This document shows, in pieces, positions 53,885 to 64,000 of a stretch of 64,000 bases of DNA. The stretch is from Cyanobium usitatum str. Tous. GTDB lineage: Bacteria > Cyanobacteriota > Cyanobacteriia > PCC-6307 > Cyanobiaceae. The position numbers and the translations under genes are program-made. The stretch covers positions 2,347,351-2,411,350 of the forward strand of contig NZ_OY986431.1 in the NCBI RefSeq assembly GCF_963920485.1, given 5' to 3'. The notes beneath the pieces are model-generated. The model had not been told where the DNA came from. It made no database searches and saw only the letters and a program-made list of their open reading frames with translations. Numbering within the stretch: the stretch's first letter is position 1; each line of letters starts with the position of its first letter.

Positions 53885-55218
53885 GCCAGGGCCTCCAGCA
53901 GGGGTTGCAGTTTCCAGCCCAGCTCCTCGGCTTCGGCGGCGGGGTCGGAGTCGGCCACGATGCCGCAGCCGGCGTGGGCCCGCAGGCGCTGGCCGCGCAG
54001 CAGCAGCGAGCGGATCAGGATGTTGCTGTCGAACTGGCCGTCGACCCCAAGCCTGAATAGGGAGCCGCAGTAGGGCCCCCGCGGCACCGGCTCGAGGCCA
54101 TGCAGGCGCTGGCAGGCGCGGATCTTGGGCGCACCGGTGATCGAACCGCCCGGCCAGCAGGCCCGCAGCAGGTCAATCGTGTCGAACCCCGGCTGCAGCT
54201 GGCCCCGCACCACCGAGGTGAGGTGGTGCACCTGGCGGTAGCTCTCCAGCCCCACCAGCTGGGGCACCTGAATCGAGCCTGGCTTGCACACCCGGCCCAG
54301 GTCGTTGCGCAGTAGGTCGACGATCATCACGTTCTCGGCCCGGTCCTTGGGGCTGGTGACCAGGTCGGCGGCGGCGTCGGCATCGGCGTCGGCATCGCCA
54401 TGGCGCGGCCGGGTGCCCTTGATCGGCCTGGTTTCCACCTCCCCACCAGCCCCCACCCGCAGGAACCGCTCCGGCGAGGCCGACAGCACCGCCTCCCCCG
54501 ACGCCGCGCCGCCGGCGATCGCCAGGCCAGCAAAGGGGGCGGCGCATAGCTCGCGCAGGCGGCCGTAAAGGCCGAGGGGATCGGCGGGGCTTGTTAAGGA
54601 GTGCTCGCAGCAGGCGGTGAGATTGGCTTGGAAAAGATCGCCGGCGGCGATCCAGGCCAACACTTGCTCCACCTGGGCGGCAAAGCGCTCCGGTGGGGTG
54701 TGCCAGTGCCAGGAGGCTGGCGCGATCGCGGCCGGGGATTGGCTCGCTGGCGTGGTGCCTAGATCAAGCCGCTCCAACAGGGCAGCGAAGCTGCTTAGCC
54801 GCGCTGGATCTTGACCCTCGAGCCACTGCTGCTGGCTGCCATGGTCAAACACCAGCACCGGGTCGTGGCGGGCGGCCCAGAGCAGGGCCATGTCGGGCGA
54901 CTGCCAATGGGGTGCCGGCTCCACCCAGGCCCCGGCTTCGTAGCTGAGCCAGCCCATCCAGTGGCCGCCGCCAGCGGCTAGATCGGCCAGCAGCGCAAAG
55001 GGATCACTGGCGCCGCTCTCCCCCGGCAGGCCGCGGCAGATGCGCTGCTCCAGGGGCGCCAGGCCAAGGCGGCTGCAGGGGCCCTGGGCGCTGCCATCGC
55101 TATCGAGCCACACCAGACCTTCCCTACCCAGCTCGGCCGCCAGGGCTTGCACTAGGGGCCAGGGATCCCGCCAGGGCAGGGCGTGATATTGGGGCTCGCG
55201 GTGGCGGGGCGGGCTCAT
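53881..55218 (-). CDS. pabB: Aminodeoxychorismate synthase component I PabB
   Basis: Chorismate-binding enzyme, 445 aa. EVLASASPERF-type [13 protein letters not shown], the PIKGTRPR segment with the Lys characteristic of PabB (TrpE has Ala at this place), [19 protein letters not shown] and [14 protein letters not shown]. The partner amidotransferase PabA is not in the window. Coupled by 4-nt overlaps to queC upstream and pabC downstream. Confidence 0.92.
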
Positions 55219-55871
55219 GCCTCAGCTGCCAGCAGGGCGGCATCGCGGATGCGGCAGCTGTCGCACACGCCACAGGGCCGCTCGCCGCCCTCGTAGCAGC
55301 TCCAGGTGCGCTCGATCGGCACGCCCAGCCGCCGGGCCTCTTGCACGATCCGGGTTTTGCTCCAGGTCACCAGGGGTGCCCAGAGCTGGGCGGCGTGGCC
55401 TTCGCGGCCGGCCTTGCTGGCCAGCTCCGCCAGGCTCTGGAAGGCTTCGAGGTAGTCGGGACGGCAGTCGGGGTAGCCGGAATAGTCGACAGCATTTACG
55501 CCCAGCACCAGCTTCTGGGCGCCGCGGGCCTCAGCCAGGCTCAGCGCCAAGGCGATGAACACGGTGTTGCGTCCTGGCACATAGGTGCACGGGATCACGC
55601 CCGCCTCAACCCCTGCGCTGGGCACGGCGATGGCGGTGTCGGTGAGGGCGGAGCCACCCCAAGCGGCCAGATTGACGGCGATGGTGTGGTGTTCAGCCAG
55701 TCCCAGGAGCGGTGCCAGTTCGGCGGCGGCTTGCAGTTCGCGGCGATGGCGTTGGCCGTAATCCAGCGACAGCCCGATCACCCGGTAACCGGCTTCGATC
55801 GCCAGGGCCGCGGCGGTAGCCGAATCCAGGCCGCCGGAGAGCAGGGCGATGGCCAGGGGTGGGCCAGGCAT
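55215..55871 (-). CDS. queC: 7-cyano-7-deazaguanine synthase QueC
   Basis: Converts 7-carboxy-7-deazaguanine to preQ0 for queuosine tRNA modification. It is 218 aa from the ATG at 55871 ([17 protein letters not shown]). PP-loop [29 protein letters not shown] and the zinc site [15 protein letters not shown] are present. The open frame to 56021 lacks similarity upstream of 55871. Overlaps pabB by 4 nt, so queC-pabB-pabC is one operon. Confidence 0.95.
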
Positions 55872-55986: not shown

Positions 55987-56517
55987 ATGGAGATGGATAC
56001 GGATTTGGCCAGGGGCATCAAGAACGCGGCGCTTGTTTTGCTGCTCGCTGCGGCGCCCGTCTCGGCGGTGCCCCGGCTCGATCTCTCTAGTTACCCCAAA
56101 GTCGCTGCCGGCGACCGGCGCTGGGTGATTCAGCTGCCGGGGGTGCTGCCCCCCAACTCCGATGCCGCCCTGTCGTCAAACCCCGCCGACTGGCGGGTGC
56201 AGTTGCTGGTGGGACAAATGGTGCAACTGGATTGCAATCGCCAGATGTTCGGCGGCAAGCTCCGCGCCGTGAAACCCGCCCAGAAGGGTGGACCGGTGAT
56301 CTATCGGGTCACGGATGTGGGGCAGTTGGCCTCCACCCGCATGGCCTGCCCGGCGGACCAGCCGCGCCGGCTCGGCTTTGTGCCGATGGCCGGTAAGGCG
56401 TTTGTGGTGCCTTACAACGCCAGTCGCCCGATCGTGGTCGATGCCCCCCGGCCGCTGGAGCTGCGCTGGCGGCTGTGGAAGGCCGAGGTCCAGGAGCGCC
56501 CGGCCCGCCTGCAGTGA
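55987..56517 (+). CDS. eco: Ecotin family serine protease inhibitor with Arg at predicted P1
   Basis: Periplasmic protease inhibitor, 176 aa from the ATG at 55987 (an ATG at 55969 is possible). A signal peptide ends APVSA. Family core: [53 protein letters not shown] and LRWRLWKAE. The two Cys (DCNRQ and RMAC) would form the conserved disulfide. The reactive loop reads STR-MAC where E. coli ecotin reads STM-MAC, so P1 is Arg, suggesting preference for trypsin-like proteases. It is unusual in picocyanobacteria as far as I know. Abuts queE tail-to-tail with no gap. Confidence 0.9.
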
Positions 56518-57165
56518 TCAGCGCAATCCCAGCAACTTGTGGCTCTGCAGGCTGAGCCGCCAGCGGCGGTGGCGGCGCACGTAGTCGATCGCCAGGGCCT
56601 GGCCAGCTGGGGAGTCCCAGCCCGGTTGCAGCAGCAGCGCCGGCTGGTTGCCAGCGGCGGCGGCCGCTGCCGCCATGGCAGCGGCGAAGGCCAGATCGGC
56701 GGCCTCGTGCACCACCACCTTGAGCTCCTGGCAGGTCGCCAGCAGCTCCGCGGTGGGAGGGCGGTGGCGCTTGGGCGAAAGGGTGATCCAGGCGAAGCGA
56801 CCACTGAGCGGATCCACGCCGCTGGTTTCCAGGTGCAGCGGCAGGCCCGAGGGCTCTAGGGCCTGGCAAAGGGGCCCCAGATCGTGGTGCAGCGGTTCAC
56901 CGCCGGTGAGCACCACGAAGGCGGCACCGGTTGCCGCGGCGGCCTCGGCTTCGGCAGCCAGCGCGGCCAGGGCTTGCTGGGGGTGCGCCTCGGCCGGCCA
57001 GGAGTGCTTGGTGTCGCACCAGCTGCAGCCCACGCTGCAGCCCCCCAGGCGGATGAACAAGGCGCTGCGGCCGGCGTGCAGGCCTTCACCCTGGAGGGAG
57101 TGGAAGGTTTCCACTACCGGCAAGGCAGCAGACAGTGGCAGGGCAGCGGCCAGTGACTGGGGCAC
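56518..57165 (-). CDS. queE: 7-carboxy-7-deazaguanine synthase QueE
   Basis: Radical SAM enzyme upstream of QueC in preQ0 synthesis. Cluster site CSVGCSWCDTKHSW (CxxxCxxC), with the VVETFHSLQGEGLHAGRSALFIRLGG lead-in, VVLTGGEPLHHDLGPL and LHLETSGV. No ATG fits; the GTG at 57165 gives 215 aa, and the frame is open back to another GTG at 57261. Separated from queC by the oppositely oriented ecotin gene. Confidence 0.93.
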   Translation of the reverse strand: MPQSLAAALPLSAALPVVETFHSLQGEGLHAGRSALFIRLGGCSVGCSWCDTKHSWPAEAHPQQALAALAAEAEAAAATGAAFVVLTGGEPLHHDLGPLCQALEPSGLPLHLETSGVDPLSGRFAWITLSPKRHRPPTAELLATCQELKVVVHEAADLAFAAAMAAAAAAAGNQPALLLQPGWDSPAGQALAIDYVRRHRRWRLSLQSHKLLGLR

Positions 57166-57419
57166 CGGGCTTCGGAGATTGGGATGTCTAGATTGGTCTA
57201 GCGCTTGGCGCTCCCTCTGGGGTGGAGTGCTTGCATGCAGACCAGTCCAGGCCAATGGCACTTTATTTGCATATGTTTGTATTAAGGACTTGTCAGCATG
57301 GGGAAATCTTCAAAACTTTATTAACAGAATAGTTGATATGGATTAGTGGGTTTTGCGCAATCGCGTAAATTCATGCAATTGTTTTATTCTTTGCAAATCG
57401 CTCAAAGACAGGCTTATTT
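57166..57419. promoter_or_regulatory. AT-rich region upstream of the type I secretion operon
   Basis: The part nearest the next gene (~57250-57419) is strongly AT-rich within a GC-rich chromosome and must carry the promoter of the secretion operon. Candidate -10 TATTCT lies at 57385-57390, but no well-spaced -35 was found. No RNA gene seen. Confidence 0.5.
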
Positions 57420-58196
57420 ATGTCGGATGAGTCTCAAAAGAGTCCAATAGCTTCTCTCGAGGAGTTGGCTCGCCTCGGCTTGCTTGAGCCCTACGTGCGA
57501 GCCAATTTGCTGGCCTTGGCGGCTAGCGATGTTGCCCTAAGCGATGAGCAAATAAATGCGGCCAGGCAGGCTTTTTGTCGTCAGTACCAAATCCGCGACG
57601 CTGAGGCTCTCAAGGCCTGGGCGATAGCCCGCATGCTTAGCCCTGCCGCCCTCGAGGCGCAGATGCGACAGCCCCTGCAGCTGCAGCTTCTCTGCCAGCG
57701 CGATTTCTCCGCCAAAGCGGAAGCGCGCTTTCTGCAGCGCAAGAACCAACTCGATCGCGTCGTTTACAGCCTGCTGCGCCTCCGCGATGGTGGTCTGGCC
57801 CGCGAGCTCTATTTGCGCATTGATGATGGCGATGCCAACTTCGCCGATTTAGCAGCCCGCTACGCCGAAGGCCCCGAGCAGGCGACCCGCGGCATTGTTG
57901 GCCCGGTGCCCCTCACCCAAGCCCACCCTGCCTTGGTTGATCGACTGCGCACCGCTCCCCCTGGCGTAGTGCTCGAGCCCTTCCAGATCGAAGCCTGGTG
58001 GCTGGTGGTGCGGCTCGAAAGCCTCACCTCCGCCACCTTCGATGAAGCCACCGCAGCCCAAATGGCCGAAGAGCTGTTCGAGCAGTGGATCTCAGAGCAG
58101 GTTGAACGACGTCTTGCTGACCTGCGGCCCCTGCTTGAGCTGGCCGTGTCCGGCGATGCTGCCCAGCCGTTAGCTCCTGCTTCACAATCGGTGTGA
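57420..58196 (+). CDS. Parvulin-like peptidylprolyl isomerase linked to type I secretion
   Basis: A 258-aa protein without a signal peptide. The N-terminal helical part (~1-105) resembles SurA/PpiC chaperone helices (MRQPLQLQLLCQRDFSAKAEARFLQRK is split over it), and residues ~110-215 look like a parvulin domain (LYLRIDDGDANFADLAARYAEGPE, then GIVGPVPLTQAHPALVDRL). Position just before an HlyB-type exporter, with a 1-nt overlap, suggests it keeps RTX substrates unfolded for export. Confidence 0.82.
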   Translation: MSDESQKSPIASLEELARLGLLEPYVRANLLALAASDVALSDEQINAARQAFCRQYQIRDAEALKAWAIARMLSPAALEAQMRQPLQLQLLCQRDFSAKAEARFLQRKNQLDRVVYSLLRLRDGGLARELYLRIDDGDANFADLAARYAEGPEQATRGIVGPVPLTQAHPALVDRLRTAPPGVVLEPFQIEAWWLVVRLESLTSATFDEATAAQMAEELFEQWISEQVERRLADLRPLLELAVSGDAAQPLAPASQSV

Positions 58197-61132
58197 TGGA
58201 CGATTCAATCCCTGCGCAGCTGCCCGCCCATCCCGCCTTTGCCGGGTTGTCGCACGCCAGCGCCGAGCGTTTGCAGCGGCAGCTCAGTGTGCGCCGGTTT
58301 GCTGTTGGTGATCCCCTTTGCCTTGGGGGCTTGATTCCCTCTGAGATTCTGCTGATCCAATCCGGCACAGCTCGCTTGCTGGTGCGGGACCAGGGCCGCC
58401 TGCGCACAGCGGAAAAGCTGGGACCGGGCAGCTTTGTGGGCCTGGCCTCCCTGTTGCGAGCTGCTCCCTGTGAGGAGGTGAGCGCGGGCTCCGAAGTGGA
58501 GGCCCTGGTGCTGGCCGACTCCCTGATCCTGGAGCTGCTGACGGGCGAAACCTCCTTCGCCCAGTGGTGTGGCTCCCACCTATTCACCGCTGAATTGGCA
58601 GCCCTACTGGCCCTGCTGCTTGAGCAGCACCCCCAGGCCCGCACTTCGATCCAGGAGTTGCTGGATCAGGCCCGCCCCCAGGCCCGACTGGTTCCGCCTG
58701 AGCCTGCGGCCCTAGCTGCCCTGCCGATTGAATTCAGCTTGCTGGCCGCCAGTCACAACCTGCTCGATCACCCCTTGGGCGCAGCGCTCAATCCCCGCCA
58801 GGGTGTGCCGGTCGCCACCCCACCGCTGCCGCCACGCCTGATTGCCCTGCCTGCGGAGCTGCTCGCGCCGGTAGCTCCAGTGCTGGAAGCCGAGCTGATG
58901 CCGGAGGGTTCCGGCAGCGGTGCCGGCGAGCCTGGTGGCTCCAATCCGCCTTTGGCTTCAGGCCTTGATCTGGGCCAGCGGGATCGCACGGCCCTGCAGC
59001 TACTGCGCGGCAATGGCCCCCTAGAGGAAACCCTCGCCTGTTTCCAGATGTTGGCGGCGGAGCTCAAGCTGCCCTTCCGCCGCGATGCGATCGAGAAGAT
59101 CCTGCGCGATGTGTTGCGCCGCGGCCAGACGCCGGACCTGCAGCTCTGCGGCAATCTCGCCGCGATGATGGGTTTGCACGTAAGCGGCGTGCGAGTGCCT
59201 GCCAACCAGGGCACGCGCCTGCAGACCCCGGCCCTGATCCCCTGGCAGGGCGGGTTTGCCGTGGTGCGGGGCGCCAATGCGCGCGGTTTGCTGCTGGCCT
59301 CCCCTCGGCAGGGCTGGGTGGAGATCTCCCCCGACCAGCTTGCCGAGGCCTTCCCCGATGGCATCGAGGTGCTGATGCTGGAGCGCAGCTCTGCCACTCC
59401 CGAGCAGCGCTTTGGCTTTGCCTGGTTCTGGCCAGCTCTGCAGCGCTACCGCGGCATCCTCACCCAGGTGCTGATCGCCTCCTTTGTGGTGCAGCTGTTC
59501 AGCCTGGCCAACCCCCTGCTGATTCAGGTGATCATCGACAAGGTGATCAACCAGCGCAGTCTCGACACCCTGCAGGTGCTGGGCTTTGCCCTGGTGGTGG
59601 TGACCTTGATGGAGGGTTTGATCGGCGCCCTGCGCACCTTCCTATTCAGCGAAACCACCAATCGCATCGACCTGCGCCTAGGCGCTGAGGTGATCGACCA
59701 CCTGCTGCGGCTGCCGCTCAATTACTTCGATCGCCGTCCCGTGGGCGAACTCGGTACCCGTATCGCTGAGCTGGAGAAGATCCGTAATTTCCTCACCGGC
59801 CAAGCGCTCACCACCCTGCTCGACACTGCCTTCTCGGTGATCTATATCGCCGTGATGCTGATCTACAGCTGGCTGCTTACCTTGATCGCCCTGTGCGTGC
59901 TGCCGATTCAGATTGCTCTCACCGTGCTTGGCGCGCCCCTGTTCCGCCGTCAATACCGCGATGCGGCCCAGGAGAACGCCCGCACCCAGAGCCACCTAGT
60001 TGAGGTGCTCACCGGCATCCAGACGGTGAAGGCCCAGAACGTCGAGATGATCAGCCGCTGGAAGTGGCAAGACCTCTACGGCAAATACATCTCCCGCACG
60101 TTTGAAAAAACCATCACCGGTACGGCCCTTACCGAAACCTCCCAGGTGCTGCAGAAGCTCTCCCAGCTGCTGGTGCTCTGGGTAGGCGCCTCTTTGGTGC
60201 TCTCCGGTGACATGACCCTGGGCCAGTTGATCGCCTTCCGGATCATTTCTGGTTACGTCACCCAGCCTTTGCTGCGGCTCTCTTCGATCTGGCAGAGCAT
60301 CCAGGAGCTCAAGGTTTCCTTTGAGCGCCTTGCTGATGTGGTCGACACCCCGGAGGAATCAGACGAGGCTGATAAGCAGAAGATTCCTCTGCCGCCCATC
60401 GCCGGCGAGGTGCGTTTCGACGACCTCTGCTTCTCCTTCACCCCAGGTGGCGCCCAGGTGTTGCGTCACATCGACTTCACCATCGCTGCCGGCACCTTTG
60501 TGGGGGTGGTGGGGCAGAGCGGTAGCGGTAAGAGCACCCTCACCAAAATGCTGGCGCGCCTCTATTCACCAGGCAGCGGCCGCATCCTGATCGACAACTA
60601 CGACATCGACAAAGTTGAGCTCTATTCGCTGCGGCGCCAAATCGGCATCGTGCCCCAGGAGCCCCTGCTGTTCACCGGCACGGTGGCAGAAAATATTGCC
60701 CTCACCGATCCCGATGCCAGCAGCGATGCGATCGTGCAGGCGGCACGTCTGGCCTGCGCCCACGATTTCATCATGGAGCTACCTGCTGGCTACAGCAGCA
60801 ATGTGGGTGAGCGTGGTGCCGGCCTTTCCGGCGGTCAGCGGCAGCGGCTGGCCCTGGCCCGCACCCTGCTCTCCCAGCCGCGGCTGCTGGTGCTCGATGA
60901 AGCAACTAGCGCCCTCGACTACGACACCGAGCGCCGAGTGTGCGACAACTTGCTCGACAACCTCAAACACTGCACCGTCTTCTTCATCACCCACCGGCTC
61001 TCCACCATCCGCCGGGCCGATCTAATCGTGATGCTGCACGAGGGAGCCGTCGTGGAAACGGGTACCCACGATGAGTTGATGGAGCGCCGAGGTCGCTATT
61101 ACGCCCTATACCGCCAGCAGGAGGTCAACTGA
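58196..61132 (+). CDS. HlyB-type type I secretion ABC exporter with cNMP-like and degenerate C39-like domains
   Basis: About 978 aa. Residues ~20-125 resemble a CRP-type cyclic-nucleotide-binding fold. Residues ~270-395 are a C39-like peptidase domain in which the expected catalytic Cys, His and Asp appear replaced (EETLACF, GGFAVV, ASPRQG), so it should bind but not cut substrate. Residues ~418-700 form the six-helix membrane domain. The ATPase shows GQSGSGKSTLT, LSGGQRQRLALARTL, LLVLDEATSALD and switch His in ITHRLS. ATG at 58196 or GTG at 58193 as start. Coupled to hlyD-like gene by 1-nt overlap. The outer-membrane TolC partner is not in the window. Confidence 0.92.
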   Translation: MDDSIPAQLPAHPAFAGLSHASAERLQRQLSVRRFAVGDPLCLGGLIPSEILLIQSGTARLLVRDQGRLRTAEKLGPGSFVGLASLLRAAPCEEVSAGSEVEALVLADSLILELLTGETSFAQWCGSHLFTAELAALLALLLEQHPQARTSIQELLDQARPQARLVPPEPAALAALPIEFSLLAASHNLLDHPLGAALNPRQGVPVATPPLPPRLIALPAELLAPVAPVLEAELMPEGSGSGAGEPGGSNPPLASGLDLGQRDRTALQLLRGNGPLEETLACFQMLAAELKLPFRRDAIEKILRDVLRRGQTPDLQLCGNLAAMMGLHVSGVRVPANQGTRLQTPALIPWQGGFAVVRGANARGLLLASPRQGWVEISPDQLAEAFPDGIEVLMLERSSATPEQRFGFAWFWPALQRYRGILTQVLIASFVVQLFSLANPLLIQVIIDKVINQRSLDTLQVLGFALVVVTLMEGLIGALRTFLFSETTNRIDLRLGAEVIDHLLRLPLNYFDRRPVGELGTRIAELEKIRNFLTGQALTTLLDTAFSVIYIAVMLIYSWLLTLIALCVLPIQIALTVLGAPLFRRQYRDAAQENARTQSHLVEVLTGIQTVKAQNVEMISRWKWQDLYGKYISRTFEKTITGTALTETSQVLQKLSQLLVLWVGASLVLSGDMTLGQLIAFRIISGYVTQPLLRLSSIWQSIQELKVSFERLADVVDTPEESDEADKQKIPLPPIAGEVRFDDLCFSFTPGGAQVLRHIDFTIAAGTFVGVVGQSGSGKSTLTKMLARLYSPGSGRILIDNYDIDKVELYSLRRQIGIVPQEPLLFTGTVAENIALTDPDASSDAIVQAARLACAHDFIMELPAGYSSNVGERGAGLSGGQRQRLALARTLLSQPRLLVLDEATSALDYDTERRVCDNLLDNLKHCTVFFITHRLSTIRRADLIVMLHEGAVVETGTHDELMERRGRYYALYRQQEVN

Positions 61133-62274
61133 TGTCGATTGTGCGCCGCGCCCAAAACGCTATTGAGCGCCGGGTTCAGACCAGCCATGAGGAGATGGCG
61201 TTGCAACAGTCCCGCTTTTTAGCGCGGGCTATCACCTGGGCCTTGGTGGGCACCACAGCTGCTGGCCTGGCCTGGCTGGCCTTCGCCAAAACCGACGAAG
61301 TGGTGGTGGCCCCTGGCAAGCTTCAGCCGATCGGCGATGTCAAAACCATCCAGATGCCGGTGGGTGGCGTGCTCGAAACCATGCTCGTCAAGGACGGGCA
61401 GCGGGTGACGAAGGGGCAGGTGCTGCTGCGCCTCGACAACGAGGCCACCCTCGACCGCCAGGGGAGTCTGCGCACCACCATCACCGCTAAGCAGGCCCAG
61501 TTGCGTCTCAAGGAGGTGGAGCTGGCGCGCTATCTCAATCTCAACGACACCGAGCAGACGGTGACACGGCAGAACCTCGTGCTTGAGATCGAAATCCTGC
61601 AGCGGCTTGAGGTCCTCAAGGCCGTTGGGGCATCTGCCGAGTTGCAGTATCTGCAACAGCGCAACAAGGTGCGCGAAGTGGAGGGTGAGATCTCCAAGCT
61701 CAAGGTCGATCGTCTGCGTCAAGTTGCGATCATTGAGCAGGCGCTGGAGCAGATCAAAGGAGAGCTGGCCGATCTCGGCAGCAAGCTCACTGAGCTCCAG
61801 GTCAACATCCGCTACCAGGATGTGCGCTCTCCGGTGGATGGGGTGGTGTTTGATCTCAAGCCCACCGGTCCTGGTTTTGTGGCCCAGGGCAGTGAGCCAG
61901 TGATGAAGATTGTTCCCTTTTCTGCGCTCCAAGCCAAGGTGGAGATTGAGAGCAGCGATATTGGCTTTGTGCGAGTTGGTCGCCCTGCCGATATCAGCAT
62001 CGATTCCTTCCCCGCTACTGATTTCGGAGTGCTGCTTGGCACCGTTAAGGGCATTGGCTCCGATGCCTTGCCCCCGGATGAGCGCAACCAGACCTATCGC
62101 TTCCCTGCCACGATTGCTCTCGACACCCAGCAGCTCATGCTGAAATCTGGCAAGAGCCTGCCATTGCAGGTGGGCATGTCACTCACGGCCAATATCAAGC
62201 TGCGCAAGGTAACTTACTTGCAACTTCTACTTGGAGAATTTAAAGATAAAACAGACTCCCTCAAGCAGATCTGA
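61132..62274 (+). CDS. HlyD-family periplasmic adaptor of the type I secretion system
   Basis: A 380-aa membrane fusion protein. One membrane helix (ITWALVGTTAAGLAWLAF, ~33-50) is followed by the lipoyl half VVVAPGKLQPIGDVKTIQMP and VKDGQRVTKGQVLLRLDN, a coiled coil (~110-230), and the second lipoyl half IRYQDVRSPVDGVVFDLK with a beta-barrel C-terminus. Works with the upstream ABC protein and an outer-membrane TolC. Its stop is directly adjacent to the pyrG stop (convergent, no gap). Confidence 0.94.
   Translation: MSIVRRAQNAIERRVQTSHEEMALQQSRFLARAITWALVGTTAAGLAWLAFAKTDEVVVAPGKLQPIGDVKTIQMPVGGVLETMLVKDGQRVTKGQVLLRLDNEATLDRQGSLRTTITAKQAQLRLKEVELARYLNLNDTEQTVTRQNLVLEIEILQRLEVLKAVGASAELQYLQQRNKVREVEGEISKLKVDRLRQVAIIEQALEQIKGELADLGSKLTELQVNIRYQDVRSPVDGVVFDLKPTGPGFVAQGSEPVMKIVPFSALQAKVEIESSDIGFVRVGRPADISIDSFPATDFGVLLGTVKGIGSDALPPDERNQTYRFPATIALDTQQLMLKSGKSLPLQVGMSLTANIKLRKVTYLQLLLGEFKDKTDSLKQI

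Positions 62275-64000
<1,726 letters not shown>

What the first reader, a model, noticed from the sequence alone, without database searches (positions are those of the whole stretch)
55987..56517. Ecotin with Arg at the predicted P1 position in a picocyanobacterium
Ecotin inhibits trypsin-fold proteases of predators or hosts and usually has Met at P1, giving broad specificity. Here the loop reads STRMAC, which should favour trypsin-like enzymes. A secreted inhibitor could protect against grazing protists or against proteases in particle-associated life.
Basis: partly seen in the sequence, partly recalled or inferred. Interest (0 to 1): 0.6.

Follow-up and report, generated by a model that had tools for sequence, protein, structure and literature searches.

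The report
Ordinary picocyanobacterial ecotin with arginine P1
The gene encodes a real, probably exported ecotin (a bacterial blocker of trypsin-type enzymes), and the arginine at its tip, which looked unusual, is the normal state in this family of tiny cyanobacteria.

Summary
Window 55987-56517 (+) encodes a 176-aa ecotin (Pfam PF03974, E 3e-30; solved-structure matches are all ecotins; AlphaFold model mean pLDDT 89.7, Z 16.8 to an ecotin). The conserved Cys pair, a signal-peptide-like N-terminus and the reactive loop STRMACP are present, and alignment to E. coli STMMACP puts Arg118 exactly at P1. From P3 to P4' the loop equals the engineered E. coli ecotin M84R.

The framing as an oddity does not hold. 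Of 110 distinct Cyanobiaceae ecotins with a readable loop, 79 have Arg at P1, 17 Leu, 12 Lys, 1 Ala, 1 Val and none Met. All 23 members of the window's clade have Arg. Arg and Lys at P1 are also published for Rhizobium, Tatumella and Burkholderia glumae ecotins.

The gene sits at one fixed site, between queC and queE, across the family, and is absent or decayed in several lineages. In the cyanobacterial phylum sample it occurs only in this family.

Most likely it inhibits foreign trypsin-like S1 proteases in the periplasm or outside. The target is unknown; published transcript data do not favour protist grazers, whose bacterivory peptidases are mainly cathepsins. New member of a known kind; modest interest.

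The parts
55987..56517 (+). ecotin gene, 176 codons plus stop (ATG at 55993 is an alternative start)
   Evidence: ORF; PF03974 3e-30; PDB ecotins; model fold
55987..56067 (+). signal-peptide-like N-terminus, ending VSA before VPRLDL (cleavage site inferred by eye)
   Evidence: sequence; low pLDDT over about the first 30 residues; no signal-peptide predictor was available
56143..56172 (+). 10-residue insertion (V53-L62) between strands 1 and 2, absent from the proteobacterial ecotins aligned; the same loop length occurs in 105 of 111 family members
56233..56235 (+). Cys83, partner of the conserved ecotin disulfide (E. coli Cys50)
56287..56301 (+). 60s loop of the secondary protease site: KGGPV in place of E. 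coli GWGYD
56332..56352 (+). reactive-site (80s) loop STRMACP, P3 to P4'; P1 Arg118 codon at 56338-56340
56347..56349 (+). Cys121, partner of the conserved ecotin disulfide (E. coli Cys87)
56410..56427 (+). 100s loop of the secondary site: P-Y-N-A-S-R in place of E. coli R108-Y-N110-S-K112-L113; the Asn is kept
55218..55871 (-). queC, divergent neighbour marking the conserved site
   Evidence: PF06508 2.3e-69; synteny
56518..57261 (-). queE, convergent neighbour marking the conserved site (start uncertain)
   Evidence: NCBIfam QueE models, below their cut-offs; synteny

Best explanation
A normal, functional ecotin exported to the periplasm or outside the cell. It presents a substrate-like loop (Ser-Thr-Arg-Met-Ala-Cys, pinned by the Cys83-Cys121 disulfide) to trypsin-fold (S1) serine proteases; Arg118 fills the negatively charged S1 pocket, so trypsin-like enzymes are held best. 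The secondary site is reduced compared with E. coli (GWGYD becomes KGGPV, Arg108 becomes Pro), so binding should rest more on the Arg loop than in E. coli. The gene was settled between queC and queE early in this picocyanobacterial family, has mostly kept a basic P1, and has been lost several times. Shown here: family membership, P1 alignment, predicted fold, purifying selection, fixed locus, distribution of P1 residues. Inferred: export, dimerisation, inhibition, preference for trypsin-like enzymes. Unknown: the real target, most likely a foreign protease.
For: PF03974 3e-30; PDB matches all ecotins, including M84R complexes 1ID5, 1P0S, 1XX9 and 1EZS with the same STRMACP loop; model Z 16.8, rmsd 1.8 over 134 residues to 1AZZ ecotin; Cys pair and Thr117 invariant in 50 sequences; dN/dS 0.13-0.24; P1 tally R79 L17 K12 A1 V1 Met0; window clade 23/23 Arg; pabB-queC-eco in nearly all loci, queC-queE joined without ecotin elsewhere; M84R strengthens binding to trypsin-like MASPs and compensates for a weak secondary site (PMC9136129). 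The genome's three trypsin-fold proteases give stronger Trypsin_2 than Trypsin matches, and ecotins were shown not to inhibit DegP/HtrA (PMC7773321), which favours a foreign target.
Against: No activity, secretion, dimer or expression data. Below the curated NCBIfam ecotin cut-off (89.9 vs 162 bits), as expected for a distant branch at about 35% identity. The altered secondary site and a 10-residue insertion could change partner choice in ways the P1 rule does not capture. No promoter-like site was found by a simple scan.
Confidence: 0.85

Rival explanations
1. Defence against metazoan grazers: ecotin released from ingested cells inhibits gut trypsins of crustaceans such as Daphnia or copepods, in the manner of cyanopeptolins from bloom-forming cyanobacteria. 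(This and the next two share the inhibitor mechanism above and differ in the target.)
For: Trypsins and chymotrypsins are the main digestive proteases of Daphnia and are targets of cyanobacterial inhibitors (PMC2873468). In cyanopeptolins Arg/Lys gives trypsin inhibition and Leu/Tyr/Phe chymotrypsin inhibition (PMC6070996), the same R/K versus L alternation seen at P1 here. The closest solved structure is ecotin on a crab digestive serine protease, 1AZZ.
Against: No ecological data; picocyanobacteria are small food for these animals; benefit after ingestion is indirect; ecotin elsewhere is a cell-protecting periplasmic protein.
Confidence: 0.3
2. Protection against trypsin-like proteases released by neighbouring or predatory bacteria, in water or on particles.
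For: Ecotin is periplasmic and acts on exogenous serine proteases in E. coli (PMC7773321). The gene is missing or broken in several relatives and in the small-genome genera sampled, as expected of an optional defence.
Confidence: 0.3
3. Protection against digestion by grazing protists.
For: Grazing is a major loss for picocyanobacteria (general knowledge), and ecotin protects E. coli against a phagocyte serine protease (PMC2635572).
Against: In marine flagellate metatranscriptomes the bacterivory peptidases are cysteine and aspartyl cathepsins and serine carboxypeptidases; 'trypsin' does not occur in that paper's text (PMC10268365). Ecotin acts on trypsin-fold enzymes only.
Confidence: 0.15
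4. Control of the cell's own periplasmic trypsin-fold (HtrA-type) proteases.
For: The genome encodes three trypsin-fold proteases.
Against: Their matches are stronger to Trypsin_2 (121-130 bits) than to Trypsin (63-70 bits), as for HtrA; Campylobacter and E. coli ecotins do not act on HtrA/DegP. Many family genomes lack ecotin altogether.
Confidence: 0.05

Closest known systems
Escherichia coli ecotin (PF03974, MEROPS I11)
   Same: Fold, disulfide, STxMACP loop, C-terminal strand ending xWKAE, export-type N-terminus
   Different: P1 Met in E. coli, Arg here; GWGYD 60s loop and Arg108/Lys112 not kept here; 10-residue insertion between strands 1 and 2 here; 35% identity
Engineered E. coli ecotin M84R (PDB 1ID5, 1P0S, 1XX9, and 1EZS with W67A/G68A/Y69A/D70A)
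   Same: Identical STRMACP loop; 1EZS also lacks the 60s contacts, much as this natural protein does
   Different: Laboratory mutants of E. coli ecotin, not natural; rest of the protein about 35% identical
Rhizobium ecotin (NZ_CP149878)
   Same: Natural P1 Arg in an STRMACP loop; Arg in Rhizobium ecotins is published (PMC9904509)
   Different: Keeps GWGYD and Arg108 of the secondary site; lacks the insertion
Other Cyanobiaceae ecotins (e.g. Synechococcus sp. CS-1330, Cyanobium usitatum)
   Same: Same locus, insertion, loop; 94-97% identical
   Different: Some lineages have Lys or Leu at P1
Cyanopeptolins (cyanobacterial depsipeptide inhibitors)
   Same: Same logic: basic versus hydrophobic specificity residue sets trypsin or chymotrypsin
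   Different: Non-ribosomal small molecules, unrelated in origin

Membership tests
Ecotin (PF03974 / MEROPS I11) | Significant match to the family profile over its length | tested here: met
   3e-30, profile positions 2-122 of 122
Ecotin (PF03974 / MEROPS I11) | Ecotin beta-fold | tested here: met
   predicted model Z 14.9-16.8 to 19 solved ecotin entries (best chain of each); a split ecotin chain 6.0; next unrelated 2.9
Ecotin (PF03974 / MEROPS I11) | Disulfide Cys pair holding the reactive loop | tested here: met
   Cys83 and Cys121 align with E. coli Cys50 and Cys87, invariant
Ecotin (PF03974 / MEROPS I11) | 80s loop S-T-P1-M-A-C | tested here: met
   STRMAC
Ecotin (PF03974 / MEROPS I11) | Secondary site (60s GWGYD and 100s Arg108/Asn110/Lys112) | tested here: inconclusive
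   only Asn110 within a YNxSxP frame is kept; GWGYD, Arg108 and Lys112 are replaced. Whether a secondary contact still forms cannot be told. Most of 103 relatives share this, so it is treated as a variable, not a strict defining, feature
Ecotin (PF03974 / MEROPS I11) | Homodimer through the C-terminal arm | not testable with these tools
   C-terminal region is present and aligned; no complex was modelled
Ecotin (PF03974 / MEROPS I11) | Export to the periplasm | tested here: inconclusive
   hydrophobic N-terminus with VSA before the mature start, seen by eye
Ecotin (PF03974 / MEROPS I11) | Inhibits trypsin-fold serine proteases | not testable with these tools
   needs an enzyme assay
NCBIfam NF002987 ecotin equivalog | Score above the curated cut-off | tested here: not met
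   89.9 bits against 162: an ecotin-family member, not certified as an equivalog of the enterobacterial protein

The most novel reading that the evidence does not exclude
Cyanobiaceae ecotins form a distinct natural class in which the secondary protease site has largely been given up and a basic P1 carries the binding, with repeated switches between Arg/Lys and Leu at P1 that retune the inhibitor between trypsin-like and chymotrypsin-like targets: a gene-encoded counterpart of cyanopeptolins.
Probability: 0.25. Interest if true: 0.5.

Novelty: new member of a known kind. Interest (0 to 1): 0.3.

Why it matters
It moves ecotin, studied mostly in host-associated bacteria, into free-living photosynthetic bacteria, and shows that Met at P1 is not the rule there. 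If the protein inhibits grazer or bacterial trypsins, picocyanobacteria would have a simple, knock-out-able gene for testing whether protease inhibition affects predation. As a single gene finding it is ordinary.

Tried and rejected
Arg P1 as an oddity: rejected by the family tally. Sequencing or frame artefact, or pseudogene: rejected (purifying selection; 97-98% identical copies in relatives). Link between Leu at P1 and a kept GWGY loop: raw counts look strong (9 of 13 Leu rows, 9 of 89 Arg/Lys rows), but the tree gives only 4 independent contrasts, not significant. Promoter and terminator scan: nothing. CBM_6 search in the genome: irrelevant and empty. P0001 search in four ecotin-less genomes: empty, and that search had no positive control in the same run. 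Literature: no paper in the held library joins ecotin with picocyanobacteria, and the papers holding both 'ecotin' and 'cyanobact' or 'Synechococcus' are, by titles and counts, not about cyanobacterial ecotin; the library omits most subscription journals. The key paper on ecotin orthologues (Eggers 2004) was not held.

Full report
What is there. The window comes from a 2.66-Mb single-contig genome, and the named close relatives are Synechococcus and Cyanobium strains. The frame at 55987-56517 (+) encodes 176 residues. Pfam finds one family, Ecotin PF03974, at 3e-30. Every PDB sequence match is an ecotin or ecotin-like protein. An AlphaFold2 model from 50 window and locus sequences has mean pLDDT 89.7 and matches solved ecotins at Z 14.9 to 16.8; apart from one split ecotin chain (Z 6.0), the next match is at 2.9. 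dN/dS of 0.13-0.24 to seven relatives shows a maintained protein.

The P1 residue. E. coli ecotin reads VSTMMACP and the window ASTRMACP; the alignments place Arg118 on Met84. From Ser to Pro the loop equals that of engineered M84R ecotins crystallised with thrombin, factor Xa, factor XIa and trypsin (1ID5, 1P0S, 1XX9, 1EZS).

Is it unusual? PF03974 was found in 119 of 400 genomes of the same family, in 17 of 59 genera. Of 111 distinct sequences, one was truncated; the others have at P1 Arg 79, Leu 17, Lys 12, Ala 1, Val 1, and Met 0. On a tree built without the P1 and P1' columns the states need 12 changes, far fewer than shuffled labels (24.7), and the well-supported 23-row set holding the window is all Arg. 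In a phylum-wide sample 22 of 386 genomes had ecotin, all in this family. A review already reports Arg or Lys in Rhizobium, Tatumella and B. glumae ecotins (PMC9904509), and a Rhizobium locus checked here reads STRMACP. Arg is therefore the family's default.

Locus history. In nearly all relatives the order is pabB-queC-ecotin, and queE follows on the far side in most, with ecotin divergent from queC. In ecotin-less genomes where both were seen, queC and queE stand next to each other, roughly 10-170 bases apart. In two genomes of one genus (G029, G120) a broken remnant with stop codons remains at the site. One complete genome of the window's own genus (G171, about 1.8 Mb) has no ecotin match, and the queC fragment and queE on one of its contig ends leave no room for one. 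The simplest reading is one early arrival at this site followed by repeated loss. Direction (gain or loss) was inferred, not tested on a species tree.

What differs from E. coli ecotin. The secondary site is largely replaced: GWGYD becomes KGGPV, and Arg108 and Lys112 become Pro and Ser, while Asn110 is kept. Pro at position 108 occurs in 96 of 103 relatives. A 10-residue insertion lies between strands 1 and 2. In E. coli ecotin, M84R raises affinity for trypsin-like MASP proteases 17- to 7000-fold and can largely compensate for a weakened secondary site (PMC9136129). By analogy, a basic P1 may matter more here. A trend for Leu-P1 proteins to keep GWGY exists in raw counts but is not significant once ancestry is counted.

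Target. The genome's own trypsin-fold proteases are three HtrA-like proteins, judged from their stronger Trypsin_2 matches, a type that ecotins tested so far do not inhibit (PMC7773321). A foreign target is thus likelier. Protist bacterivory peptidases in one marine study were cathepsins and carboxypeptidases, outside ecotin's range (PMC10268365). Crustacean gut trypsins (PMC2873468) or bacterial trypsin-like enzymes fit better, but nothing here decides between them.

Verdict. Observation confirmed; interpretation partly supported; an ordinary member of a known family on a lineage where that family is little described in the papers searched.

Noticed in passing
window 57420-62274 (+): A three-gene run next to queE: a PpiC-type rotamase protein (best NCBIfam match TIGR04500, 'putative peptide maturation system', below cut-off), an ABC transporter with a cyclic-nucleotide-binding domain and a weak peptidase C39 match, and an HlyD-type membrane fusion protein. 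Looks like a type I export unit for a protein or peptide; no substrate gene was sought.
   Followed up: partly
L151 and L157 (genomes G120 and G029), beside queC: Ecotin remnants with in-frame stop codons at the conserved site: the gene decaying in place in one genus while another genome of that genus (G071) keeps an intact copy.
   Followed up: partly
L056, L067, L091, L096, L101: Divergent ecotin-like proteins (Leu or Val at P1) with no pabB, queC or queE match in the flanks held. In two genomes (G222, G259) they occur beside a standard copy elsewhere on the chromosome, so they look like a second, separately acquired type.
   Followed up: no
L106 (genome G276): A single ecotin with Ala at P1 (STAMAC) nested among Lys-P1 relatives.
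   Followed up: no
window 62275-63885 (-): CTP synthase-like ORF (536 aa) after the export genes, named by eye from its sequence; ordinary.
   Followed up: no
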